From positions 496,001 through 560,000 of the forward strand of contig NC_018027.1 in assembly GCF_000266905.1 (NCBI RefSeq): a stretch of DNA of 64,000 bases, read 5' to 3'. This document shows positions 2 through 41,849 of this stretch, one piece after another. The stretch comes from Mycolicibacterium chubuense NBB4. Its GTDB lineage: Bacteria; Actinomycetota; Actinomycetes; Mycobacteriales; Mycobacteriaceae. Within the stretch, counting starts at the first letter, position 1. Every line of letters begins with the position of its first letter. Position numbers and translations under genes: made by a program. The notes beneath the pieces are model-generated. The model was not told the DNA's origin and did no database searches. It saw only the letters and a list, made by a program, of their open reading frames with translations.

Positions 2-402
2 CGCGGATGTATGCCCGTGCCGCAGCGCGTGATTCGGGCCCGGGTCCATGGGCGCCAGGTCTATCTCGTGCCGCGGGCCGATGGCGTGGTGGTCGGCGCG
101 ACGCAGTACGAGCACGGTCGCGACACCGCACCGGCGGTCACGGGAGTGCGCGAGCTGCTCGACGACGCCTGTGCGGTGATGCCCGCGCTGGGGGAGTACG
201 AATTGGCCGAGTGCGCGGCGGGTCTGCGTCCGATGACGACCGACAACCTGCCGTTGGTCGGCCGGCTCGACGGGCGCACGCTCGTCGCCGCGGGGCACGG
301 TCGGTCGGGTTTCCTGTTGGCGCCGTGGACGGCCGAGGCGATCGCTGCGGAGCTGCGCGGCACGCCACTGCCCGGGGCGCCGGTGCTGGAAGGGATGGCG
401 AG

Positions 403-20528: not shown

Positions 20529-23030
<2,502 letters not shown>

Positions 23031-23070
23031 ACTCCAACGTAGCGCAGCCGTGAGGAAGTCGGCAGGGGGA

Positions 23071-31178: not shown

Positions 31179-31811
31179 ATGCCCACGGTGCCGATGTTCC
31201 CCCTCGAAGTGGCCATGGTGCCGGGGGAGACGTTGCCGCTGCGCATCTTCGAACCGAGGTACTCGGCGCTCGTGCAGGACTGCCTGGCGACCGACGACCC
31301 GGCATTCGGCGTCGTGCTGATCGCGGCGGGCCGCGAGGTGGGCGGCGGCGACAGCCGCAGTGATGTCGGGGCGCTGGCGCACATCACCGAGTACGCCGAC
31401 CTGGGTGACGGCCGCTACCGACTCAAATGCGTGATGCGAGAACGTATCCGGGTGATCGAGTGGCTTCCCGACGACCCGTACCCGAAGGCGGTGGTCGAGG
31501 AGTGGCCGGACGAGGCCGGTGCTCCGGTCGACGTCGCCGCCATCCGGGACATCGAGGACCGCATGGTCGCGCTGTTCGAGCGGATCGCCGCGGCACGCGG
31601 TGCCGACGTGCACGGCCGTGACATCGTGCGGGGAGCCGACGATTCCGGCGACGTCGCCACCTGGCTGTACGCGTTGACCGTCCGGCTGCCGATGGGGCAG
31701 GCCGACCGCTACGCGATCCTCTCGGCGCCCACCGCGGCGCAGCGGGTGGCGGCGCTGTCGGAGGCGGTGGACACCGTCACCGCGATGGTGGAGTTCCAGC
31801 TGTCCGAATAG
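31179..31811 (+). CDS. LON substrate-binding domain protein
   Basis: 210 residues made mostly of a LON N-terminal (PUA-like) domain: PMFPLEVAMVPGETLPLRIF, then EPRYSALVQDCL and FGVVLIAAGREVGG. No ATPase or protease domain follows, so it is a stand-alone substrate-binding module, like M. tuberculosis Rv0434. The C-terminal half is helical. It starts 2 nt after the ligase stop. Its end faces the methyltransferase end across a hairpin repeat. Confidence 0.9.
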   Translation: MPTVPMFPLEVAMVPGETLPLRIFEPRYSALVQDCLATDDPAFGVVLIAAGREVGGGDSRSDVGALAHITEYADLGDGRYRLKCVMRERIRVIEWLPDDPYPKAVVEEWPDEAGAPVDVAAIRDIEDRMVALFERIAAARGADVHGRDIVRGADDSGDVATWLYALTVRLPMGQADRYAILSAPTAAQRVAALSEAVDTVTAMVEFQLSE

Positions 31812-31842: not shown

Positions 31843-31905
31843 CGCCGAGATTGCATCTAGCGCGCGAAATTTCGTGACGATGACGCGTGGAATGCAATTT
31901 CGGCG
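31843..31905. repeat. 63-bp hairpin repeat, copy 1
   Basis: Imperfect inverted repeat with 22-nt arms: left arm 31843-31864 starts CGCCGAGATTGCAT, right arm 31884-31905 ends GGAATGCAATTTCGGCG; 17 of 22 positions pair. The loop contains a perfect palindrome CGAAATTTCG (31865-31874). It lies exactly between two convergent genes (LON-domain stop at 31811, methyltransferase stop at 31916). Copy 2 is at 41354-41417 with a near-identical right arm. It may serve as a bidirectional transcription stop or be a dispersed element. Confidence 0.75.
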
Positions 31906-31915
31906 GGATGCGGGG

Positions 31916-32758
31916 CTAGAGGAGGCGGCCTTCGACGAACATGCTGAGCGCCGGCGGATCGTCGTCCGATGCCGGTGCGCGGTGGTATCTGCTCATCAGA
32001 TCGACGGCATCGATGGACGTGACGTCCCACCGGTGCGCGCACAGCCACGCCGCCACGTCGGTGCGTTCCTCCATGTACCACAACTCGTGTGGCGCGCCGG
32101 ATCGCTCGCGATAGCGAGCCACGTTCTCCGGCTCGAAGAACGCCGGGCTGAACGCTTCGACGGCGATCCGGCTGCCGCGGGCACTGTACAACCCGATCTG
32201 CTCGAACAACCGATCCTGCGCTGCCGCAGACAGATAGGGCAGCAGTCCCTCCGCCGACCACGCGGTCGGCTCGTTGTGATCGAAGCCCGCCGCCCGCAGC
32301 GCATGCGGCCAATCGTCGCGCAGATCGACCGGCACCGGCATGTACTTGGCGGACAGTTGCGCGTCCGAGGTGTCCAGGACACTGGTCTTGAAGGACAACA
32401 CCTTTGGCTGGTCGACCTCGTAGATGACCGAGTCGCTGAGCCACGGCAGCCGCCAGGCGCGGGTATCCAGGCCCGCGGCGAGGATCACGACCTGCGACAC
32501 ACCGGCCGCGCTGGCGGAGAGGAAGAAATCGTCGAACCACTTGGTGCGCGCCGCGGCATAGTCGGTGATCGACCGCCTCCGCTCGGGACTCAGCTCGAGC
32601 CCTTGATCGCCCGTCGCGTCCAGGAACAGTTGCGCGTACGGGTCGGTGAACAGCGGACGTTCTGACGCGGTCTCCCACGCGCGGGCCGTCGCGACCCCCA
32701 ACGCCGTGCGGCCGACGCCCTCTGTGATGTCCCAGGTGTCACCGTCACGACGAGTCAT
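31916..32758 (-). CDS. SAM-dependent methyltransferase (TIGR00027 / leucine carboxymethyltransferase-like)
   Basis: 280-residue class I methyltransferase of the large mycobacterial family related to PPM/LCMT. The SAM motif is VVILAAGLDTRAWRL near residue 95, preceded by FTDPYAQLFL and the family block AARTKWFDDFFLSA; IYEVDQPKVLSFK supplies the ribose-binding acid and TAWSAEGLLPYL follows. Start at the ATG of MTRRDGDTWD; this overlaps the end of mrpG by 14 nt, so it may ride on the mrp transcript. The substrate is unknown, perhaps a polyketide or lipid O-methyl acceptor. Confidence 0.88.
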   Translation of the reverse strand: MTRRDGDTWDITEGVGRTALGVATARAWETASERPLFTDPYAQLFLDATGDQGLELSPERRRSITDYAAARTKWFDDFFLSASAAGVSQVVILAAGLDTRAWRLPWLSDSVIYEVDQPKVLSFKTSVLDTSDAQLSAKYMPVPVDLRDDWPHALRAAGFDHNEPTAWSAEGLLPYLSAAAQDRLFEQIGLYSARGSRIAVEAFSPAFFEPENVARYRERSGAPHELWYMEERTDVAAWLCAHRWDVTSIDAVDLMSRYHRAPASDDDPPALSMFVEGRLL

Positions 32759-33107
32759 GATCGCCGGATTCCCGATCCGCGGCGAAATCATGCATTTCGT
32801 CCCTGGTCAGCAAGTCGTCTCGGATGTTCTGCTCGCGGTAGGCCAGTTGGCCCACCCGGTTGGCGATCACCGGCGCGGTGATGACCGTGAAGAGGCCGCT
32901 GAGGATCAGCATGCCGACGTCGACGTGTCCTCTCAGCCGGATGGCCGCGCCCGCCAACACCAGGAGCAGGCCGAGCACCTGCGGTTTGGTCGCCGCATGC
33001 ATCCGCGACAGCGTGTCGGGGAATCTCACGACGCCGATCGCTGCGGTGAGTGCCAGCGCCGACCCACCGAGAATCAACACGCTGGTGACGATGTCCAGTG
33101 GGCTCAT
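32745..33107 (-). CDS. mrpG: Na+/H+ antiporter subunit MrpG (MnhG)
   Basis: 120 residues with three membrane helices: IVTSVLILGGSALALTAAIG, the conserved VVRFPDTLSRMHAATKP and VDVGMLILSGLFTVITAPV. The FPDxLSRMHAATK signature is diagnostic. The acidic C-terminus (EMHDFAADRESGDHD) is cytoplasmic. ATG overlaps mrpF stop (ATGA); its own end overlaps the methyltransferase gene. Last mrp subunit of the operon. Confidence 0.93.
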   Translation of the reverse strand: MSPLDIVTSVLILGGSALALTAAIGVVRFPDTLSRMHAATKPQVLGLLLVLAGAAIRLRGHVDVGMLILSGLFTVITAPVIANRVGQLAYREQNIRDDLLTRDEMHDFAADRESGDHDSS

Positions 33108-33388
33108 CGCTCCGCCCTGTCTGCCGGGTCCGCCACGTCCGGCACTCGGAAGCGCGCGACGCTGACCGATCCGATGAAGGTGATCAGCGCCAGCGCGGTC
33201 AGGCTGTAGGTGACCGTGGTGTCCCGGCTGTAGGCGGCCCAGGTGCCGATCGCGCACATCGCCACGGCGACGAGCGTGTCGAGGGCGACCAGCCGGTCCA
33301 ACGTCGACGGACCGAGCAGCATCCGCAGCATCGTCGCGAACGCCGCGACCGACAGCATGACCGCTGCCGCGATCCACACATAGTTCAT
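33104..33388 (-). CDS. mrpF: Na+/H+ antiporter subunit MrpF (MnhF)
   Basis: 94-residue three-helix protein. MLRMLLGPSTLDRLVALDTL is the family signature (R-x-x-x-GP-x-x-x-DR-x-x-A-x-D). Start at the ATG of MNYVWIAA; a longer reading into the mrpE gap has no homology-like content. It lies 31 nt after mrpE and overlaps mrpG. Confidence 0.93.
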   Translation of the reverse strand: MNYVWIAAAVMLSVAAFATMLRMLLGPSTLDRLVALDTLVAVAMCAIGTWAAYSRDTTVTYSLTALALITFIGSVSVARFRVPDVADPADRAER

Positions 33389-33419
33389 GCGCGATCCGCC
33401 TTCGCTCCTCGCTGATAAG

Positions 33420-33953
33420 TCATGCGGGATCCGCCTTCCCTGACGGTCGCCAGTCCGCGTCACGCTCGAACGAGGCGACCAGCAGCTTCTCGAGCCCCGT
33501 CATCTGGCGGTAGAACCGCTTGACGGTGCGATCGGAGCCGACGTCGAGGACGTGCACGTAGATCATCCGGCGGGCCTGATCGATCTCGAGCACGACGGTG
33601 CCGGGCGTCAGGTTGACGATGTTGACGGCCAGCGCCAGAACGAGATCCGACTTCACCGCGATGTGTGCGCGCAGGACCGCCGACAGCGGCGGCGGGCCCG
33701 GCTTCAGCGCCAGCGCGGCCACCTGGACCGACGACACCACCAGGTAGTAGGCGACGGTGGCGAGCAGGCGCAGCAGCGGCAGCGGGTGCAGCCGGCCCTC
33801 GACCGGCACGGCCGGCAGCGGCAGCAGCAGCGTGATCACCAGCGCAACCGCCAGGCCGGACAGGATGTTCGCCGCAGAGATCGTGCCCCACAACAGAACC
33901 CACACCAGGATCAGCCAGCACACGATCCACACGCGCAGCGTGGTCGCCCTCAT
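33420..33953 (-). CDS. mrpE: Na+/H+ antiporter subunit MrpE (MnhE)
   Basis: 177 residues: two or three N-terminal membrane helices (VWIVCWLILVWVLLWGTISA and ALVITLLLPLPAV) and a cytoplasmic domain containing VNIVNLTPGTVVLEIDQ, a motif found in MrpE proteins, then YVHVLDV. The tail after about 150 is hydrophilic. It follows mrpD by 13 nt. Confidence 0.92.
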   Translation of the reverse strand: MRATTLRVWIVCWLILVWVLLWGTISAANILSGLAVALVITLLLPLPAVPVEGRLHPLPLLRLLATVAYYLVVSSVQVAALALKPGPPPLSAVLRAHIAVKSDLVLALAVNIVNLTPGTVVLEIDQARRMIYVHVLDVGSDRTVKRFYRQMTGLEKLLVASFERDADWRPSGKADPA

Positions 33954-33966
33954 CGCCGCCCCCCGG

Positions 33967-35583
33967 TCATCGCGCCTGCCCGAGAACCGCCGAGATGTAC
34001 TGCCCGCGGTCGAGCACCTCGGCGGCGGCGCGGTCGCTGTAGGCGAAGATCGGGCCCGCCAGCACGGTGAGCATCAGGCCCACCGCGATCAACGCACCGG
34101 TCGGCACCAGCATGCCGACCGGCATCCGGCCCACGTCGTCGCGATCGGCGAGTTGGATGTCCATCGACTCCTCGGTGTTGTCCACCAGCGCGGTGGGTGC
34201 GGCCGCCGACAGATGTCCCTCCGGGGCGTCCTTGCGCGATCGCCAGAACGCCTTGGTCCAGACCCGCGCGACCACGTACAACGTCAGCAGGCTCGTGACG
34301 ACGCTGCCGGCCACCAGCGCCCACGCCAGCACCGAACCGGACTGCGAACCGGCCTCCAGCAGCGCCACCTTGCCGATGAACCCCGAAAACGGGGGAATAC
34401 CACCCAGATTGAGCGCGGGCACGACGAACACGAAGGCCAGTACCGGGCTGGCCGCGGCCAGCCCGCCGAGCCGCTCCATCGTCGAGGCGCCGGCCTGGCG
34501 CTCGATCAGACCGACGACCAGGAAAAGCGTCGTCTGCACGAGAATGTGGTGCGCCACATAGTAAATCGCTCCGGACATGCCCAGGTGATTGGACAGCGCG
34601 ATCCCGAACACCATGTACCCGATGTGGCTCACCAGGGTGAACGAGAGCAGCCGCTTGATGTCACTCTGAGCGATCGCGCCCAGGATTCCCATCACCATCG
34701 TCAGCAGGCCCGCCACCAGCAGCACGTTGTCCATCGCGCCGCCGGGGAACAGCAGTGAGTGCGCGCGGATGATCGCGTAGACACCGACTTTGGTGAGCAG
34801 GCCGGCGAACACCGCGGTGACGGGCGCGGGTGCGGTGGGGTAGGAGTCCGGCAGCCACGTCGACAGCGGGAAGACGGCGGCCTTGATGCCGAACGCGACC
34901 AGCAGCACTGCGAACAACGCCGTTCTGGTGCCACCGGCGACGTGCTCGAGGCGCACCGACAACTCGGCCATGTTCAGCGTCCCCGTCGTGGCGTACACCA
35001 GCGCGATGCCGAACAGGAACACCAGCGAGGACACCATCGAGACCATCACATACGAGATGCCCGCACGGACGCGCTCCTTACTGGCGCCGATGGTCAGCAG
35101 CACGAAACTCGCCGAGAGCAACACCTCGAACCCGACGAACAGGTTGAACAGATCACCGGCCAAAAACGCCATGTAGACACCCGCGGACAACACCAGGTAG
35201 GTGGGCAGGAAGATCGAAACGGGTTGGCGCCCATCGCCGTCGCGGATGCCCTGCCCGATCGCGTAGAAGACGACGGCGAGCAGCACGATCGACGACACGA
35301 CCAGCATCAGTGCCGAGAGCCGGTCGACCACCAGCGTGATGCCGAGCGGTCCCATGCCCGGTTCGGTCGGGCCCCAGCCGCCGACCTGTAATGCGATGGT
35401 GCCGTCGCGGTCGGCGAGGTGCACCAGCGCGGCCGAGACGACCAGCACCACCGACAGCGCCAGCACCGTGATGAAGCGCTGCAGCCGCGGCCTGCGCCCG
35501 GCCAGCAGCGTCATGGCGGCCGCGATCATCGGCACCAGCACCGGGAGCGGCGTGAACGTCGTCGCGAGATGGCCGCCGATCAC
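33967..35583 (-). CDS. mrpD: Na+/H+ antiporter subunit MrpD (MnhD)
   Basis: 538-residue, about 14-helix ion-translocating subunit homologous to complex I NuoM/NuoN. Key features are FVGFEVLLSASFVLL (the conserved membrane Glu of helix 5), STWLPDSYPTAPAPVTAVFA with the helix 7 Lys following in LLTKVGVYAII, and SHIGYMVFGIALSNHLG. It overlaps mrpC by 4 nt. Confidence 0.95.
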   Translation of the reverse strand: MIGGHLATTFTPLPVLVPMIAAAMTLLAGRRPRLQRFITVLALSVVLVVSAALVHLADRDGTIALQVGGWGPTEPGMGPLGITLVVDRLSALMLVVSSIVLLAVVFYAIGQGIRDGDGRQPVSIFLPTYLVLSAGVYMAFLAGDLFNLFVGFEVLLSASFVLLTIGASKERVRAGISYVMVSMVSSLVFLFGIALVYATTGTLNMAELSVRLEHVAGGTRTALFAVLLVAFGIKAAVFPLSTWLPDSYPTAPAPVTAVFAGLLTKVGVYAIIRAHSLLFPGGAMDNVLLVAGLLTMVMGILGAIAQSDIKRLLSFTLVSHIGYMVFGIALSNHLGMSGAIYYVAHHILVQTTLFLVVGLIERQAGASTMERLGGLAAASPVLAFVFVVPALNLGGIPPFSGFIGKVALLEAGSQSGSVLAWALVAGSVVTSLLTLYVVARVWTKAFWRSRKDAPEGHLSAAAPTALVDNTEESMDIQLADRDDVGRMPVGMLVPTGALIAVGLMLTVLAGPIFAYSDRAAAEVLDRGQYISAVLGQAR

Positions 35584-36047
35584 CGGGAGCCCTCGAATCC
35601 CGGTAGCGCATCGAGCTCGTCGGGCAGGTCGGTGTCTCTGGAGGCGTCCGGTTCGGGTCGCTCCTCGATGTCGTCGTCCTCCTTGCCGGACAGCTGCGAC
35701 ACCCGGGTGTCCTCCGGGTCGTTGCTGACCTCTTCGATCGTGTTGATCCGATACGAGCGGTAGGTCAACGCCAGCACGAAGGCCGCGATCCCCATCGTGA
35801 TCACGATGGCGGTCAGCACCAGCGCCTGCGCCAGCGGATCGGCGGTCGTCGTCTCGCCGTCGCTGGTGCGGCCGTGCACCGGCGGGTTGCCCGACGGTCC
35901 GCCGACCGACAGGATCAGCAGATTGATCGCGTTGCCGATCAGCAACAGCCCCAACAACATCCGGGTCAGGTGGCGCTCGAGCAACAGGTACACCCCGGCG
36001 CTGGTGAGGCCGCCGATGATGATCAGCGGAACCAGGTAGGTGGTCAC
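35580..36047 (-). CDS. mrpC: Na+/H+ antiporter subunit MrpC (MnhC)
   Basis: 155 residues; NuoK-like three-helix core with SAGVYLLLERHLTRMLLGLL, then LLIGNAINLLILSVGG and DPLAQALVLTAIVITMGIAA, the conserved MrpC block. The C-terminal 50 residues are strongly acidic (DDDIEERPEPDASRDTD), longer than in many MrpC proteins. It overlaps mrpA and mrpD by 4 nt each. Confidence 0.94.
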   Translation of the reverse strand: MTTYLVPLIIIGGLTSAGVYLLLERHLTRMLLGLLLIGNAINLLILSVGGPSGNPPVHGRTSDGETTTADPLAQALVLTAIVITMGIAAFVLALTYRSYRINTIEEVSNDPEDTRVSQLSGKEDDDIEERPEPDASRDTDLPDELDALPGFEGSR

Positions 36048-38956
36048 CGTCTACCTCGGCTCACCGTCGCGTTCACCGTCGCGCGCTGCTCGCTCATCTC
36101 CTCGTCGATCCGCGCGCCGAGGCTGCGCAGCACGTCGAGGACCAGACCCACCACGATCAGATAAACCCCCAAGTCGAAGAAGATGGCGGTGACGAACTTG
36201 ACGGTGCCGAGTACCGGAACGTCGACCTGGATCAGTGCCGACGAGAGCGCGGGCGCTCCGACGAGCAGGGAGGCGAAGGCGGTGCCCGCCGCCAGCGTCA
36301 GCCCGGCGCCGAGGATCTTGCCGGCATCCAGCGGCAGCGTCTCACCGAGTTCGTAGCGCCCGCCCGCGAGATACCGCAGCACCAGGGCGAGGCCGGCCAT
36401 CAGCCCGCCGGCGAAGCCACCGCCGGGGGTGTTGTGGCCGGCGAAGAAGAAGTATGCCGAGAGCACCATCATGACCGGGAAGATCAGCCGGGTGGCGACC
36501 TCGAGGACCAGCGAGCGATGCCGCGGGTCGCGCAGTTCGCTGCCGCGCAACCACGTGATGTCGCCGGCGGCGGGGCTGTTGTTGGCGAACACCGACACTT
36601 TGCCGATGTCGGGCTGTCCGGCGTCGGCCACCCGGGGTGCGGCCCCGAACCGCCTGTTGCGGAACACCATCGACGCGACGCCGGTCGCCGCGACCAGCAG
36701 CACCGACACCTCGCCCATGGTGTCCCAGGCGCGGATGTCGACCAGCAGGACGTTGACCGCGTTGGCTCCGTGGCCGCGCAGATACGCCGCGTCGGGCAGC
36801 AGCTCGGCGATGGGCCTGCCGCTGCGGGCGGCCATCGCGAACGCGGCCAAGCTGGTCACCGCGGCGCCGACGGCCAGCGCCAACAGCGCCCGCGGCACGC
36901 GGAACCGCTTGATGTCGGCGCCCCCGGTCTCCGCGGGCAACGTGCGCAGCACGAGCACGAACACCACGAGCGTCAGCGTCTCCACGAGGAACTGGGTCAA
37001 CGCGAGGTCGGGCGCGCCGTGGAACGCGAAGATCGCGCCGCACCCGTACCCGGTCACCCCGACCAGCAGCACGGCGGCCAACCGGTTGCGCATCACCGTC
37101 GCGCCGATCGCGGCCGCGAGCATCAAGACGCCCACCACCACCTGCGGGGGTGAGTCCCACAGCTCGAACTTCGGACGGTCACGGGCGCCGAGCGAGAGGA
37201 CCGTGATCGGCACGAGCACGAGCGTGGCGAGGATGACCGACTGAGTGGCGGGGATCGAGCCGCGTTGCGTGAACGCCGTCAGCCGCACCGACATGATGTC
37301 GGCGCCGCGCAGCACGGCGTCGTAGATGCGGTCGGCGTTGGCCAGCGGCAGGAACGCCAGTCTGGCCCTGCGCAGCCGGCCGCGGCTCACGTATATCGTG
37401 ACACCGGCCGCGAGCATCAGAACCGACAGAGCAAGCGGCAGGTTCAGGCCGTGCCACAACGCCAGGTGATAATCCCCGACGTAGCCGGCGGGATCGGGAA
37501 CCGTGCCGGCGTAGTCGTCGAGAACGACGTCGAGCCGCGACGGCCACAGGCCGAACAGCAGACCCGCGGCGGCGAGAATGCCGGGCGGAAGCAGGAATCC
37601 GAGCTCGGGCCGGTGCATCTCCGCCACCCGGGTGCTCGCTTGCGGCAAGCCTTTTCGGCCGAACGCGCCGAACACGAACCGCAGGCTGTACACCGTGGTC
37701 AGCACGGAACCGGCGACGATGCCCGCGAGCACCACGGGCGCCGCCGCACCCAGGTTCGGGCTGTGCAGCACCGTCTCCAGGTCAGCCTCCTTGGCGACGA
37801 ACCCGAAGAACGGTGGCAGCGCGGCCATGCTCGCGGCCGCGCAGCCGGCGATCACGAGCAGCGGCTTGGCGCGGTCACCGAGCCAGGCCAGCCTGCGGAT
37901 GTCGCGGGTGCCGGTGGCGTGGTCGATGATCCCGACGACCATGAACAGCGCCGCCTTGAACATCGCGTGCGCGCACAGCATCGCCAGCCCGGCCAGCATC
38001 ATCTCGCTGCCGCCCGAGCCGACCATCACCGTGATGAGGCCGAGCTGGCTGACCGTGCCGAACGCGAGGATCAGCTTCAGGTCGTATTCGCGCAGCGCGC
38101 GCCACCCGGCCAACAACATCGTCAGCAGGCCCAGTGTCACCACCGTCGGCCGCCACTCCGGGGCGTCCGCGAAGCCGGGCGTCATCCTCGCGATCAGGTA
38201 GACGCCGGCCTTGACCATGGCGGCCGCGTGCAGGTAGGCGCTCACCGGTGTCGGGGCGGCCATGGCGCCCGGCAACCAGAAGTGCATCGGCACGATCGCC
38301 GACTTCGACAGCGCGCCGATGAGCACCAGCACGACCGCCACGGACGCGGCGACGCCCGTCGGCGGGTCGGCGACCAGCTCGGAGAGCAGGAACGTGCCGC
38401 TGACGTTGCCCAGCACCACGATGCCGACCAGCATCGCCAGCCCGCCGAACGTCGTCACCAGCAGCGCCTGGGTGGCGGCCCGACGGCTCGTCGCACGTTC
38501 GGCGTAGTGGCCGACCAGCAGGAACGACAGGACCGTGGTGATCTCCCAGAACACGTAGAGCATCAGCATGTTGTCGCTGGTGACCAACCCGAACATCGCT
38601 CCGGAGAACGCGACCAGCTCGGCGGCGAAGCTTGGCAGCCGGTTCTCCTTGCGGCCGTCGTGGTGGTGGAAGTAGTCGGCGCAATAGAACAGCACCAACG
38701 CGCCGATGCCGAGCACCAGCACGCTCATGATCGCGGCGAGGGAGTCGAAGCGCAGCGTGATGTCCATCGACAGCTCCGGCACCCACGGCACGTGAACGCT
38801 GCGGGCGGGGCCGGCGCCCGGCCAGTTGAGCGCGACCCAGACCAGCGAGCCGAGCGGCACGAGCGCCAACGGATAGAACGCCAGCCGTCCCCAGCGGTAC
38901 ACGAGCAGCGGCGCCAACAGCGTGGCGGCTGCATGGGCAGCGAGGATGGCGAGCAT
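36044..38956 (-). CDS. mrpA: Na+/H+ antiporter subunit MrpA with fused MrpB domain
   Basis: 970-residue first gene of the operon. The NuoL-like part (about 1-700) has YVFWEITTVLSFLLVGHY (helix 5 Glu), HFWLPGAMAAPTPVSAYLHA and AAAMVKAGVYLIARM (Lys). Next comes the MrpA-specific segment. The end is a complete MrpB domain: FAGHNTPGGGFAGGLMAGLA, VDVPVLGTVKFVTAIFFDLG and a short basic tail. There is no separate mrpB, so the operon is A/B-C-D-E-F-G. Start at the ATG of MLAILAAHAAATLL; upstream reading through the trkA promoter was rejected. Confidence 0.95.
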   Translation of the reverse strand: MLAILAAHAAATLLAPLLVYRWGRLAFYPLALVPLGSLVWVALNWPGAGPARSVHVPWVPELSMDITLRFDSLAAIMSVLVLGIGALVLFYCADYFHHHDGRKENRLPSFAAELVAFSGAMFGLVTSDNMLMLYVFWEITTVLSFLLVGHYAERATSRRAATQALLVTTFGGLAMLVGIVVLGNVSGTFLLSELVADPPTGVAASVAVVLVLIGALSKSAIVPMHFWLPGAMAAPTPVSAYLHAAAMVKAGVYLIARMTPGFADAPEWRPTVVTLGLLTMLLAGWRALREYDLKLILAFGTVSQLGLITVMVGSGGSEMMLAGLAMLCAHAMFKAALFMVVGIIDHATGTRDIRRLAWLGDRAKPLLVIAGCAAASMAALPPFFGFVAKEADLETVLHSPNLGAAAPVVLAGIVAGSVLTTVYSLRFVFGAFGRKGLPQASTRVAEMHRPELGFLLPPGILAAAGLLFGLWPSRLDVVLDDYAGTVPDPAGYVGDYHLALWHGLNLPLALSVLMLAAGVTIYVSRGRLRRARLAFLPLANADRIYDAVLRGADIMSVRLTAFTQRGSIPATQSVILATLVLVPITVLSLGARDRPKFELWDSPPQVVVGVLMLAAAIGATVMRNRLAAVLLVGVTGYGCGAIFAFHGAPDLALTQFLVETLTLVVFVLVLRTLPAETGGADIKRFRVPRALLALAVGAAVTSLAAFAMAARSGRPIAELLPDAAYLRGHGANAVNVLLVDIRAWDTMGEVSVLLVAATGVASMVFRNRRFGAAPRVADAGQPDIGKVSVFANNSPAAGDITWLRGSELRDPRHRSLVLEVATRLIFPVMMVLSAYFFFAGHNTPGGGFAGGLMAGLALVLRYLAGGRYELGETLPLDAGKILGAGLTLAAGTAFASLLVGAPALSSALIQVDVPVLGTVKFVTAIFFDLGVYLIVVGLVLDVLRSLGARIDEEMSEQRATVNATVSRGRR

Positions 38957-39024
38957 GGCTCCGTCTCGTCGTGGGTCGGCGATGAGTGTCAGGCGTCGAA
39001 GACAACAGAATGTGTCAGCCGGAC

Positions 39025-39038
39025 TGACTCTGGAGTCA
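39025..39038. promoter_or_regulatory. Palindrome in the trkA-mrpA gap
   Basis: Perfect inverted repeat TGACTC-TG-GAGTCA lies in the 104-nt gap between trkA and the mrpA start (38957-39060), about 70 nt upstream of mrpA. It may be an operator for the mrp operon. No recognisable regulator gene is adjacent. Confidence 0.4.
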
Positions 39039-39060
39039 CCACAGTCTACGGGGACCGCGG

Positions 39061-39750
39061 TCAGTGAGGTTCGCCGCTGACCATCGCCCGGATCTGTTCC
39101 TCGGCCGCCATTGCGCAGATGAAGAGGATTTCGTCGCCGTCCGCCAGCACGTCGTGGCCGTCGGGAACGATGAGGCGGTTGCCGCGCAGCAGCGTGACGA
39201 CGGCGCTGTCCGGCGGCATCGCCAGCGCGCGGACCTGCCGGCCGACCAGCGGGCTGTCCGGGGGCAGCGTGAACTTGGCGATGTTGGTCGCGCTGCGGCC
39301 GATGCCGGCGCGAGAGACCCGCCCGAGGTCCATCAGCCGCACCACGTGGCCGACGTCGATCGCGCCCTCGACCGCGGCGACGATGGCCACGGGCGTCGAC
39401 ACGGCCACGTCGACACCCCACGCCTCGGTGAACAGCCACTCGTTGCGCGAGTCGTTGATCCGCGCCACGACCCGGTCGATGCCGAACTCGCTCTTGGCCA
39501 GCAGCGCCATCGCGAGGTTGGCCTTGTCGTCACCGGTGGCCGCGATCGCGACGTCGCAGATCTGCATCTCGGCCTCCTCGAGGGAGGACACCTCGCAGGC
39601 GTCGGCGAGGAACCACTCCGCGCCCGGCACGGTCGAGGGCTCGTAGCGCGCGAACTCCTTCTCGATGAGGAGCACCTTGTGGCCGTAGTCGACCAACTCC
39701 TGCGCCACGGACCGGCCGACCGCGCCGGCTCCGGCGATCGCGATCCGCAT
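39061..39750 (-). CDS. TrkA-family RCK potassium-transport regulator
   Basis: 229-residue cytoplasmic protein with one RCK_N Rossmann domain (MRIAIAGAGAVGRSVAQEL, acid in LLIEKE, ATGDDKANLAMALLAKSE) and an RCK_C domain (about 145-229: LPPDSPLVGRQVRALAMPPD). It resembles mycobacterial CeoB/CeoC; it would bind NAD(H) or nucleotides and gate a K+ channel or antiporter. It is divergent from the CPA1 antiporter 97 nt away and upstream of the mrp operon, so its partner is probably one of these. Confidence 0.9.
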   Translation of the reverse strand: MRIAIAGAGAVGRSVAQELVDYGHKVLLIEKEFARYEPSTVPGAEWFLADACEVSSLEEAEMQICDVAIAATGDDKANLAMALLAKSEFGIDRVVARINDSRNEWLFTEAWGVDVAVSTPVAIVAAVEGAIDVGHVVRLMDLGRVSRAGIGRSATNIAKFTLPPDSPLVGRQVRALAMPPDSAVVTLLRGNRLIVPDGHDVLADGDEILFICAMAAEEQIRAMVSGEPH

Positions 39751-39767
39751 GTGTCTCCTTCGCCGCC

Positions 39768-39810
39768 GTCCTGATGACGACTGTCCTGATTTACTTGCAT
39801 CGACACAAGT
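39768..39810. promoter_or_regulatory. Divergent trkA / antiporter promoter region
   Basis: The 97-nt gap between the divergent trkA-like and antiporter genes holds a direct repeat GTCCTGAT (39768-39775 and 39783-39790) and an inverted repeat ACTTG-N8-CAAGT (39793-39810). Both are candidate operator elements for coordinated control of the two genes. No promoter hexamers are clear. Confidence 0.35.
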
Positions 39811-39847
39811 GCCCGTACCGAAGTCAGCGAGGTCTGGTGAGTCCCTG

Positions 39848-41344
39848 GTGAGTTTGCACCAGTTGTATGTGGCGCTGTTCCTCGGTGGTCTCGTGCTGCT
39901 GGCGAGCATCGCCGCCACGAGGCTCGCCACCGGAGCCGGCCTGCCCAGTCTGTTGCTGTTCCTCGGCGTGGGCTTGATCGTCGGCGAGGACGGACTCGGC
40001 CTGCACTTCGACAACGCGCAACTGGCGCAGGACCTGGGCACCGCGGCGCTGGGTGTCATCCTCGTCGAGGGCGGCCTGACGACGCGGTTCGGCGACATCC
40101 GCCGAGTGCTCGCGCCGGCAAGTGTGCTGGCCACCGTCGGCGTCGGGGTCAGCACGTTGGTCACGGCCGGCGCGGTGCACTGGCTGCTGGGCATGGACTG
40201 GCAGCTGGCGCTGCTGCTCGGGGCGATCGTCTCGAGCACCGACGCCGCCGCCGTGTTCTCGGTTCTGCGGGTGGTGCCGCTGCCCCGGCGACTGGGCGGC
40301 CTTCTGGAGGCGGAGTCGGGTTTCAACGACGCGCCCGCCGTCATCCTGGTGCTGTTGTTCAGCGCGACGCCGTTGGTCCTCGATGCCGGCGAGGTCGCGA
40401 TAACCCTGGTGTACGAGTTGGCGATCGGGGCGTTGATCGGCCTCGGGTGTGGATTTCTGGGCGCGCTGACGCTGCGGCGGATCGCGTTGCCCGCGGCCGG
40501 CCTGTACCCGCTGGTGACGTTCGGCCTGGGCATGGTGGCGTTCGCTGCGGCGGGCTCGGCGAACGCGAGCGGCTTCCTCGCCGCGTACCTGGCGGGTGTC
40601 GTGCTGGCGAATTCCGGCCTGCCGCACCGCTCTGCCACCCGATCGTTCGCCGAGGGGTCGGGCTGGCTGGCGCAGATCGGCGTGTTCGTGATCCTGGGTC
40701 TGCTGGTGTCGCCGGCTGACCTGCTCGATGAGGTGGTGCCGGCCGTCGTCACCGGTCTGATCCTGCTGCTGCTCGCACGCCCCATCTCGGTCCTGGTGTC
40801 GCTCATCGGTTTTCGTGTGCCGTGGCGGGAGCAGGTGTTCCTGTCGTGGGCGGGGCTGCGCGGGGCGGTGCCCATCGTGTTGGCGACCTATCCGATCGTC
40901 GCGGGAGTCCCCGACAGCTGGCGGCTGCTCAACATCGTGTTCATCCTCGTCGTGCTCTACACCGTGGTGCAGGGGCCGAGTCTGCGGCTGGTCGCCGAGC
41001 GACTCGACTTGATCCCGCGCGACACCACCCGCGAGATCCAGGTCGACGCGGCGCCGTTGGACGTCTTGGGCGCCGAGTTGCTGACCATGACCGTGTCGCC
41101 CGGCTCGCGGTTGCACAACGTCACGGTGCTCGAGCTGCGGCTGCCGGACCCCAGCGTGATCACGCTGATCATCCGCGCGGGCCAGTCGTTCGTGCCCGAG
41201 CGCATGACCCGGTTGCAGATCGGCGACGAGCTGATGATCGTCACGACCACCGCGACCAGAGAGCTCGCGGAGCGGCGGCTGCGGGCGGTCAGCCGGCGCG
41301 GCAAGCTCGCGTACTGGTTCGACGAATACGGCGATCCGGGCTAG
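39848..41344 (+). CDS. CPA1-type cation/proton antiporter with RCK_C domain
   Basis: 498 residues: about 12 membrane helices then a cytoplasmic RCK_C/TrkA-C domain (about 400-498: LTMTVSPGSRLHNVTVLELR, then IRAGQSFVPERMTRLQIGDE). The ion-binding helix contains SSTDAAAVFSVLR, and ESGFNDAPAVILVL carries the conserved ND, both typical of NhaP2/CvrA potassium/proton antiporters. Start set at the GTG before SLHQLYVALFLGG. The RCK_C tail suggests nucleotide control and fits its divergent TrkA neighbour. Its end faces the DUF1707 gene across hairpin repeat copy 2. Confidence 0.92.
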   Translation: MSLHQLYVALFLGGLVLLASIAATRLATGAGLPSLLLFLGVGLIVGEDGLGLHFDNAQLAQDLGTAALGVILVEGGLTTRFGDIRRVLAPASVLATVGVGVSTLVTAGAVHWLLGMDWQLALLLGAIVSSTDAAAVFSVLRVVPLPRRLGGLLEAESGFNDAPAVILVLLFSATPLVLDAGEVAITLVYELAIGALIGLGCGFLGALTLRRIALPAAGLYPLVTFGLGMVAFAAAGSANASGFLAAYLAGVVLANSGLPHRSATRSFAEGSGWLAQIGVFVILGLLVSPADLLDEVVPAVVTGLILLLLARPISVLVSLIGFRVPWREQVFLSWAGLRGAVPIVLATYPIVAGVPDSWRLLNIVFILVVLYTVVQGPSLRLVAERLDLIPRDTTREIQVDAAPLDVLGAELLTMTVSPGSRLHNVTVLELRLPDPSVITLIIRAGQSFVPERMTRLQIGDELMIVTTTATRELAERRLRAVSRRGKLAYWFDEYGDPG

Positions 41345-41353
41345 CACCCCACC

Positions 41354-41417
41354 CGCCGAACTTGCATTCCGCGTGGGAATCTCGCGGGCGGAGTCAACGT
41401 GGAATGCAATTTCGGCG
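41354..41417. repeat. 64-bp hairpin repeat, copy 2
   Basis: Inverted repeat with 20-nt arms: left arm 41354-41373 starts CGCCGAACTTGCATTCC, right arm 41398-41417 is CGTGGAATGCAATTTCGGCG; 18 of 20 positions pair. The right arm is identical over 19 nt or more to that of copy 1 (31884-31905). It fills the gap between the antiporter stop (41344) and the DUF1707 stop (41418), again between convergent genes. The two copies bracket the methyltransferase-mrp-trkA-antiporter block. Confidence 0.78.
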
Positions 41418-41849
41418 CTAGGTGCGGCAGGGCGGGAAGGCGTAGCGGATCGGCAGCGCGTGGGCGAGCACGCCGATGCCCGCACCGAGGATCGGCCAGA
41501 TCGGCCAGAAGTACCACGCGTCGGCGGACAGTCCGACCGCGAGCCACACGGTCAGCACGACGACGACCATCGTCAGGTAGCCGGCCAGGTGGATGTGGAC
41601 GCTGCGCCGGGCGGCGGCGCGGCGGGCGGCGGCGCGGCGGGGATCGTGGCGGCGCAGTTCCGCCAGCGGCAGGTCCGCGGTGAGCCGGCGCAGGTCCGGC
41701 GTGGTGTACGCGTCGAAGACGGTGGCGACGCGCTTCTCGTATTCGGCCAGGTCCAGATACCCCTGCGCGAGTGCCTGACCGAGCAGCGCCGCAGCGGCCT
41801 CCCGGTCGCGATCGCCTGCGCGCAGAGTGGGCGTGACATCGGTGCTCAT
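41418..41849 (-). CDS. DUF1707 / 2TM membrane protein
   Basis: 143 residues. The N-terminal DUF1707 domain (LRAGDRDREAAAALLGQALA, then GYLDLAEYEKRVATVFDAYT, about 9-55) is a SHOCT-like helical module found in actinobacterial membrane or regulatory proteins. A very Arg/Ala-rich stretch (about 65-82) is followed by two membrane helices (YLTMVVVVLTVWLAVGLSA and FWPIWPILGAGIGVLAHAL). Start at MSTDVTPTL. Function unknown; its promoter carries a strong inverted repeat. Confidence 0.85.
   Translation of the reverse strand: MSTDVTPTLRAGDRDREAAAALLGQALAQGYLDLAEYEKRVATVFDAYTTPDLRRLTADLPLAELRRHDPRRAAARRAAARRSVHIHLAGYLTMVVVVLTVWLAVGLSADAWYFWPIWPILGAGIGVLAHALPIRYAFPPCRT

What the first reader, a model, noticed from the sequence alone, without database searches (positions are those of the whole stretch)
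31843..41417. Two matching hairpin repeats bracket a 9.5-kb cation-transport block
Copies at 31843-31905 and 41354-41417 share the arm GTGGAATGCAATTTCGGCG and fold into 63-64 bp hairpins. Each fills a gap between convergent genes, and together they flank exactly the block (methyltransferase, mrp operon, trkA, CPA1 antiporter) that is absent between Rv0434 and Rv0435c in M. tuberculosis as I remember it. They could be remnants of an insertion event, substrates for recombination, or a dispersed family acting as bidirectional terminators.
Basis: partly seen in the sequence, partly recalled or inferred. Interest (0 to 1): 0.7.

Follow-up and report, generated by a model that had tools for sequence, protein, structure and literature searches.

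The report
Dispersed palindromic repeats at gene ends
The two hairpins belong to a 63-base palindromic repeat family spread through mycobacterial genomes, mostly just after stop codons and spelled differently from genome to genome; the cation-transport block between these two copies appears to be bracketed by coincidence.

Summary
The hairpins are real but do not mark an insertion. They are two of at least 74 copies in this genome of a 63-bp palindrome family matched in 137 of 148 sampled genomes of the genus and in 3 others of an order-wide sample. Of 69 copies, 36 lie in convergent gaps, 30 tandem, 1 divergent, 2 inside genes; median distance to a stop codon 7 nt. The mrp genes are present in 67 of 80 named relatives; no model match occurs at site 1 in 42 of them with that junction, and four share site 2. 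So the bracketing is coincidence.

Arms differ between genomes by two-sided changes (17 of 21 pairs) yet agree within a genome. One copy sits in frame inside a membrane-protein gene in four genomes, still palindromic, with different arms. No copy has a U-tract (0 of 102 approaches).

Best reading: a palindromic DNA element copied or homogenised within each genome, whose hairpin probably also ends or protects mRNAs. Closest known: the M. tuberculosis TRIT motif, Myt-1 and REPs.

The parts
31843..31905 (-). Hairpin copy 1 (63 nt); better-scoring orientation on the minus strand; arms depart from perfect pairing
41354..41417 (-). Hairpin copy 2 (64 nt, one extra loop base); better-scoring orientation on the minus strand
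31179..31811 (+).
   Evidence: Pfam PF02190; gene call; distance
31916..32791 (-). SAM-dependent methyltransferase gene, stop 10 nt from copy 1
   Evidence: PF04072, TIGR00027, distance
32745..38956 (-). mrp (Na+/H+ antiporter) operon, subunits G, F, E, D, C, A; my gene caller missed mrpG, which the ORF and profile show
39061..39750 (-). trkA-like gene (TrkA_N + TrkA_C)
39869..41344 (+). CPA1-type potassium/proton antiporter gene, stop 9 nt before copy 2
   Evidence: PF00999, NF003716, gene start, distance
41418..41849 (-). DUF1707/2TM gene; its stop codon abuts copy 2; lies outside the bracket but has no match in L107-L109 either

Best explanation
The hairpins belong to a genus-wide family of short palindromic DNA elements: arms of about 20 nt (outer ends CGCCG/CGGCG) around a loop of about 21 nt with a conserved, one-sided motif AAAGT-CGAG. 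Shown: the element is dispersed on the chromosome, sits almost only just after stop codons, is present at some sites and absent at the same site in relatives where the stop codons nearly touch, occurs in frame inside a few genes, and has arms that stay palindromic while their spelling is similar within a genome and different between genomes. Inferred: copies are spread or overwritten within a genome by a DNA-level process (transposition-like or gene conversion) that reads the palindrome and loop. Inferred also: at gene ends the transcript folds into the hairpin from either direction and defines or protects mRNA 3' ends (U-less termination, or a stop for 3'-5' exonucleases after Rho termination), which would explain why copies survive there. 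The cation-transport block lies between two copies by chance.
For: 69 places by model R1 and 5 more by R2, none listed on the other two contigs. Context 36 convergent/30 tandem/1 divergent/2 inside of 69, against 3.1/36.0/27.9 expected of 67 by non-coding length; in 70 copies from other genomes 35/29/2/2 plus 2 at locus edges. Median stop distance 7 nt (n=102) and 9 nt (n=99); 26 of 30 tandem copies nearer the stop than the next start. Covariation in 47 copies of 63 nt: 17 of 21 pairs with two-sided changes, 95.1% of cells paired, 0 of 500 shuffles as high, slid partners 27-41% (the shuffles do not keep relatedness). Loop motif CGAG in 35 of 43 foreign 63-nt loops, shuffles at most 8. Arm identity within minus between genomes 0.177 over 12 genomes, permutation maximum 0.050. 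At site 2 the G000 and G476 copies match their own genome (0.92, 0.98) better than any orthologue compared (0.88 at most). In-frame copy at one place of a membrane protein in 4 genomes, palindromic with different arms, while 25 of 31 loci have 0-30 nt there. No orientation bias to tandem genes: 32 of 59 on the same strand.
Against: No mobilising protein was identified: PF01797 (Y1/RAYT family) is absent from G000, though over cut-off in three of its four copy-rich relatives tested (G476, G477, G478). No target duplication or exact insertion junction was established. Sharing of site 2 shows that copies can be stably inherited, and for G477 and G478 the site 2 copy is closer to its orthologue (0.975) than to the mean own-genome copy (0.886, 0.885). 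Of the four genomes with the intragenic copy, the genome's own spelling was sampled in depth for two only (G000, G037). The 10-fold excess in convergent gaps needs targeting or positive selection and is not explained by copying alone. G-U pairs are not favoured over A-C on the sense strand of tandem copies (43 against 56), so RNA-level selection got no support. No RNA 3'-end data were available.
Confidence: 0.6

Rival explanations
1. A selected family of bidirectional, U-less transcription terminators (the TRIT idea): each copy is kept because it stops convergent or tandem transcription; similarity between copies reflects functional constraint on the sequence.
For: 3'-end location of 66 of 69 copies here, 1 of 69 divergent, stable hairpins with covarying arms. 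PMC10937400 (passages) reports no conserved motif in the 3' flanks of hairpins upstream of 121 M. tuberculosis termination sites. PMC1590033 (passages) says that stem-loops of all bacteria studied there prefer convergent gaps.
Against: No U-tract (0 of 102); no G-U preference on the sense strand; in-frame copies inside an open reading frame stay palindromic; arm dialects are not expected from independent site-by-site selection.
Confidence: 0.25
2. A purely selfish palindromic element with no role at gene ends; it is found there only because insertions elsewhere do harm.
For: Matches vary from 2 to 109 (both strands) between 18 named genomes; presence and absence at the same site; the intragenic copies look, by eye, to be in loops, linkers or tails.
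Against: If any non-coding base were tolerated, 3.1 convergent and 27.9 divergent copies of 67 are expected, against 36 and 1 seen; promoter intolerance explains the divergent deficit but not the convergent excess.
Confidence: 0.2
3. A double-stranded binding site for a chromosome- or nucleoid-associated protein, with the palindrome read as DNA.
For: Common 63-bp length, conserved outer ends, thinning toward the presumed terminus (4 of 69 copies in the last fifth), no orientation bias.
Against: Tight tie to stop codons and scarcity in divergent gaps are not expected for an architectural site; dialects would need a co-evolving protein in every species.
Confidence: 0.1
4. The two hairpins are remnants of the event that inserted the mrp block, or the recombination sites that mobilise it.
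For: They flank most of the block.
Against: mrp genes occur in 67 of 80 named loci (8 more end within 2 kb of the Lon gene), while a model match occurs at site 1 in none and at site 2 in four; the DUF1707 gene lies outside the bracket; 20 of 68 neighbouring copies are within 10 kb anyway.
Confidence: 0.02

Closest known systems
TRIT (terminator-like motif of M. tuberculosis in RNIE, Gardner et al. 2011)
   Same: A structured, sequence-conserved motif enriched at gene ends in a mycobacterium (abstract recalled; the paper is not held; PMC3526491 passages mention a TRIT model used on M. tuberculosis)
   Different: TRIT's sequence could not be compared here. Arm dialects, the one-sided loop motif, presence and absence at sites and in-frame intragenic copies are shown here for the genus; whether they were described for TRIT is unknown to me.
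Myt-1 / Myt-8 stem-loop families of M. tuberculosis (PMC2267715, 2008)
   Same: Dispersed structured repeats; Myt-1 listed with length 72 and 75 members (table passages)
   Different: Their sequences are not in the passages seen; identity with this family is a guess.
REP elements (GTAG- and CGTC-tagged; PMC3733652)
   Same: Short palindromes, many copies, mostly downstream of genes and in convergent or unidirectional gaps, some intragenic; [quoted passage not shown]
   Different: No GTAG or CGTC tag at the ends, longer (63 bp against 20-40 bp), conserved asymmetric loop, no PF01797 protein in this genome
Rickettsia palindromic elements (recalled)
   Same: Palindromes that sit in frame inside protein genes and are translated
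   Different: Here 4 of 139 copies are inside called genes
DUS inverted-repeat terminators of Neisseriaceae (hairpin role mentioned in PMC2267715 passages; dialects recalled)
   Same: Inverted repeats at gene ends whose sequence forms species dialects
   Different: Arms are about 20 nt and, among the places listed, occur largely as inverted pairs at fixed spacing, not as many single short words

Membership tests
Canonical intrinsic (Rho-independent) terminator | stable G+C-rich hairpin | tested here: met
   -25 to -58 kcal/mol in the copies folded
Canonical intrinsic (Rho-independent) terminator | U-tract directly after the hairpin | tested here: not met
   0 of 102 approaches have 4 or more T in the first 8 nt; the flank is G-rich
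TRIT motif | conserved structured motif enriched at gene 3' ends | tested here: met
   66 of 69 copies downstream of at least one gene
TRIT motif | match to the published covariance model or to M. tuberculosis copies | not testable with these tools
   paper not held; M. tuberculosis not among the named loci
REP element | terminal GTAG or CGTC tag | tested here: not met
   ends are mostly CGCCG/CGGCG and the 3-nt flanks vary (alignments A1 to A3)
REP element | RAYT/Y1 transposase in copy-rich genomes | tested here: not met
   PF01797 over cut-off in 3 of 12 copy-rich genomes (not in G000; one more below cut-off) and in 1 of 10 genomes without an R1 match
REP element | mostly in convergent and unidirectional gaps | tested here: met
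Rickettsia palindromic element-like | in-frame presence inside protein genes | tested here: met
   4 of 139 copies inside called genes, plus the DUF1707 frame reading through the hairpin in L050
DUS-type uptake signal hairpin | short word in hundreds of mostly unpaired copies | tested here: not met
Rfam families | match at the gathering score | tested here: not met
   none at the hairpins in the window or in 10 other copy loci

The most novel reading that the evidence does not exclude
A palindromic element of mycobacteria without a known transposase that is aimed at stop codons and continually rewritten within each genome, so that its copies, even those read as protein in the middle of a gene, change their arm spelling together. 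A trans-acting factor that recognises the palindrome and the loop motif AAAGT-CGAG would drive both the copying and the co-evolution; the host has taken the element over as a bidirectional mRNA 3'-end hairpin.
Probability: 0.25. Interest if true: 0.75.

Novelty: new variant of a known kind. Interest (0 to 1): 0.5.

Why it matters
PMC10937400 (passages) reports few strong termination sites in M. tuberculosis, and how mycobacterial mRNA 3' ends arise is open. A genus-wide hairpin placed within a few bases of stop codons is a testable candidate. Its genome-specific arm spellings, and its staying palindromic even where it is translated, point to an unknown DNA copying or conversion process acting on short palindromes.

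Tried and rejected
Block-insertion or recombination reading: insertion rejected. RAYT-driven REP: rejected for this genome only; Y1 genes exist in three copy-rich relatives. Plasmid or phage carriage: no match with one copy as query. Known Rfam element: none. G-U against A-C on the sense strand: no support for RNA-level selection (30 tandem copies of G000 and 28 of the 29 foreign ones). Pairing beyond the core: positions 1-10 outside pair in 25-36 of 69 copies, no clear extension. The dense cluster at C3:1.2453-1.2553 Mb was looked at by eye only.

Limits: gene calls come from my own codon-usage caller, which missed mrpG. Background junctions come from the same neighbourhoods plus the window; one search counted two copy-bearing junctions as background (26 convergent), corrected (24). 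The first pair count used 41 of the 43 foreign copies of 63 nt plus 4 of this genome, leaving out L217 and L218; one search includes both; 27 foreign copies of other lengths are in neither. Arm identities were computed without gaps, which understates genomes with length variants (G011, G102, G133); foreign copies were the best scorers by the G000-derived model, a bias toward similarity. Scored candidates were capped per genome (150; 13 to 36), so copy numbers are lower bounds. PMC5217627 (passages) names a CGAAA(N)19TTTCG motif pair in Mycobacterium; its spacing differs from this element and I did not pursue it. M. tuberculosis by name, RNA 3'-end maps and the TRIT model could not be examined.
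Full report
OBSERVATION. The 63-nt and 64-nt segments fold with z near -5 against single-base shuffles. Copy 1 lies in the 104-nt gap between the stop of a Lon substrate-binding-domain gene (ends 31811) and the stop of a methyltransferase gene (31916); copy 2 in the 73-nt gap between the stop of a K+/H+ antiporter gene (41344) and the stop of a DUF1707 gene (41418). Between them lie the methyltransferase, mrpGFEDCA, a trkA-like gene and the antiporter.

FAMILY SIZE. The genome has 6.34 Mb in 3 contigs. A covariance model (R1) built from 27 copies found 69 distinct places (136 matches on both strands; 150 of 4751 candidates scored), all on the 5.58-Mb contig that begins near dnaA. A second model (R2), built from 45 copies of many genomes, adds 5 places, so at least 74. 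Copies thin out towards the presumed terminus: 17, 21, 18, 9, 4 in fifths from origin to mid-contig. Of 68 neighbouring pairs, 20 are within 10 kb (about 9 expected for evenly thrown copies), so copies cluster somewhat and two of them 9.5 kb apart are unremarkable.

LOCATION. With my own codon-usage gene caller (window coding fraction 0.94), 36 of 69 copies are between convergent genes, 30 between tandem genes, 1 (a weak copy) divergent and 2 inside genes. Element-free junctions in the same stretches and the window are 24 convergent, 196 tandem, 49 divergent; Fisher P = 9e-15 for convergent and 2e-4 for divergent (which corrects two mislabelled junctions). By non-coding length one would expect 3.1, 36.0 and 27.9 of 67. 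Stop codons are a median 7 nt away; of 102 approaches 85 are at 0-15 nt and 2 overlap. Tandem copies are nearer the stop than the next start in 26 of 30. In 70 copies fetched from other genomes: 35 convergent, 29 tandem, 2 divergent, 2 inside, 2 at locus edges, median stop distance 9 nt. Orientation relative to tandem genes is even: same strand in 18 of 30 here and 14 of 29 elsewhere.

STRUCTURE. In 47 copies of 63 nt (43 foreign, 4 of this genome) the 21 stem pairs show two-sided changes in 17, 95.1% of cells pair, none of 500 shuffles reaches the observed value on any of five measures, and sliding the partner drops pairing to 27-41% (95.9% without L217 and L218). The shuffles do not keep relatedness, as the tool warns; the slid controls do. 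The loop is conserved and one-sided: CGAG near the middle in 35 of 43 foreign loops and 31 of 60 loops of this genome (63-nt copies only), against shuffle maxima of 8 and 11. There is no U-tract: 0 of 102 approaches have 4 T in 8 nt; the flank is G-rich. On the sense strand of tandem copies A-C mismatches are at least as common as G-U pairs (27 against 20 here; 29 against 23 in 28 foreign copies), so nothing shows that the pairing is tuned as sense RNA.

THE BLOCK. One scan of named genomes with the Lon-domain protein gave the best 80 of 261 loci. In 67 mrp genes follow; 8 loci end within 2 kb of the Lon gene; 5 have no mrp match (L083 M. shimoidei, L100 M. fragae with the methyltransferase only, L107-L109). 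R1 finds a copy at site 2 in 3 of 10 loci that hold both genes of that junction (L037, L049, L050) and in L032, whose locus ends inside the hairpin. At site 1 it finds none in 42 loci with a Lon-methyltransferase junction, 26 of which have 15 nt or less between the stops. Four weaker matches lie elsewhere in L033, L038, L085, L091. L080 has at site 1 a hairpin of similar design with other arms, and L045 a diverged hairpin-like stretch at site 2; neither reaches the threshold. At site 2 the antiporter's C-terminus and stop position are the same with and without the element. So the block does not depend on the hairpins, and the DUF1707 gene outside hairpin 2 is missing with it in L107-L109.

DIALECTS. 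M. austroafricanum (L037 genome) writes the arm CGCCGAAATTGCATTCCAGCA in 8 of 8 sampled copies, strain CR10 CGCCGGAATTGCATTCC in 8 of 8; in the L049 and L050 genomes 10 of 12 begin CGCCGGAAC followed by T or G, then GTATTCC (9) or GTGTTCC (1). Arms at site 2 resemble the own genome: the G000 copy is 0.92 identical to other G000 arms and at most 0.88 to orthologues, G476 0.98 against at most 0.88; but G477 and G478 are 0.975 alike at site 2 and 0.89 to their own copies, as expected if that pair inherited it (L032 not compared, being cut). Within-genome minus between-genome arm identity is 0.177 over 63 copies of 12 genomes, against a permutation maximum of 0.050.

COPIES INSIDE GENES. In this genome (C3:213102-213164) and in G123 the element is read in frame within a membrane protein of about 550-570 aa ('membrane' by eye). 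All 60 genomes searched have the gene. In 31 loci of it (30 returned plus L174) four carry a palindrome at the same place (G000, G054, G037, G123) with different arms and different encoded peptides; one (L304) has what may be a decayed copy; 25 have 0-30 nt there; one could not be placed. G037 and the M. austroafricanum record share coordinates, and its intragenic copy has that genome's spelling; for G054 and G123 too few other copies were read to say. Other intragenic cases: just before a CoA-transferase III domain in L209, the tail of an ATPase-like protein in L155 (by eye), and the DUF1707 tail in L050. A strong terminator should not be tolerated inside a gene, and selection for termination would not keep the palindrome there; a DNA-level process would.

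RANGE. R2 matches in 137 of 148 genomes of the genus and in 18 of 18 named mycobacteria chosen from the 80 loci, with 2 to 109 matches on both strands. In an order-wide set of 397 it matches 45, namely 42 of the genus and 3 others with 1-2 matches each at E 1e-6 to 1e-5; R1 in a family-wide set matched one genome outside the genus, weakly. That the genus is Mycobacterium in the wide sense is inferred from the named relatives. Plasmid and phage records gave no match to one copy.

KNOWN THINGS. PMC3526491 (passages) uses a 'TRIT model' from Gardner et al. 2011, which I recall as a conserved structural motif at gene ends in M. tuberculosis; the paper is not held. PMC2267715 (passages) lists Myt-1 (72 nt, 75 members). 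PMC3733652 (abstract and passages) describes REPs in convergent and unidirectional gaps. PMC1590033 (passages) finds stem-loops of all bacteria studied enriched in convergent gaps, so the location alone is not new. PMC10937400 (passages) reports few strong terminators in M. tuberculosis and no conserved 3' flank motif at hairpins of 121 sites. In searches for TRIT, RNIE with mycobacteria, mycobacterial palindromic repeats, terminators and intragenic palindromes I saw no description of genome-specific arm dialects, in listings and passages only. The family is probably the genus-wide form of the known M. tuberculosis motif; this is not tested.

VERDICT. The hairpins are real; the bracketing is coincidental. 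The family is a palindromic DNA element that is copied or homogenised within genomes (shown: dispersal, presence and absence at sites, dialects, intragenic copies; inferred: the process) and probably serves at gene ends as a bidirectional 3'-end hairpin (inferred from position only).

Noticed in passing
G000:C3:213102-213164 (L114:2603-2665) and L174:1504-1566: Element read in frame inside the same membrane-protein gene in two species, and at the same place in G054 and G037, with different arms
   Followed up: yes
L133 (G000:C3:1242700-1258000): Seven copies within about 10 kb, plus one weak match, the densest cluster seen
   Followed up: partly
G000 contigs C1 and C2: No listed copy on 0.76 Mb of other contigs (possibly plasmids), while the chromosome has at least 74
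   Followed up: no
window 22922-23033 (minus): TPP riboswitch just above the Rfam gathering score
   Followed up: no
L080, Lon-methyltransferase gap: A hairpin with similar outer ends but different arms at site 1 in Mycobacterium sp. PS03-16; it may be a further dialect or a second family
   Followed up: no
L043, site 2 gap: A 22-nt gap containing CGCCGAACTTTCGGC, which looks like a collapsed palindrome, a possible deletion scar
   Followed up: no
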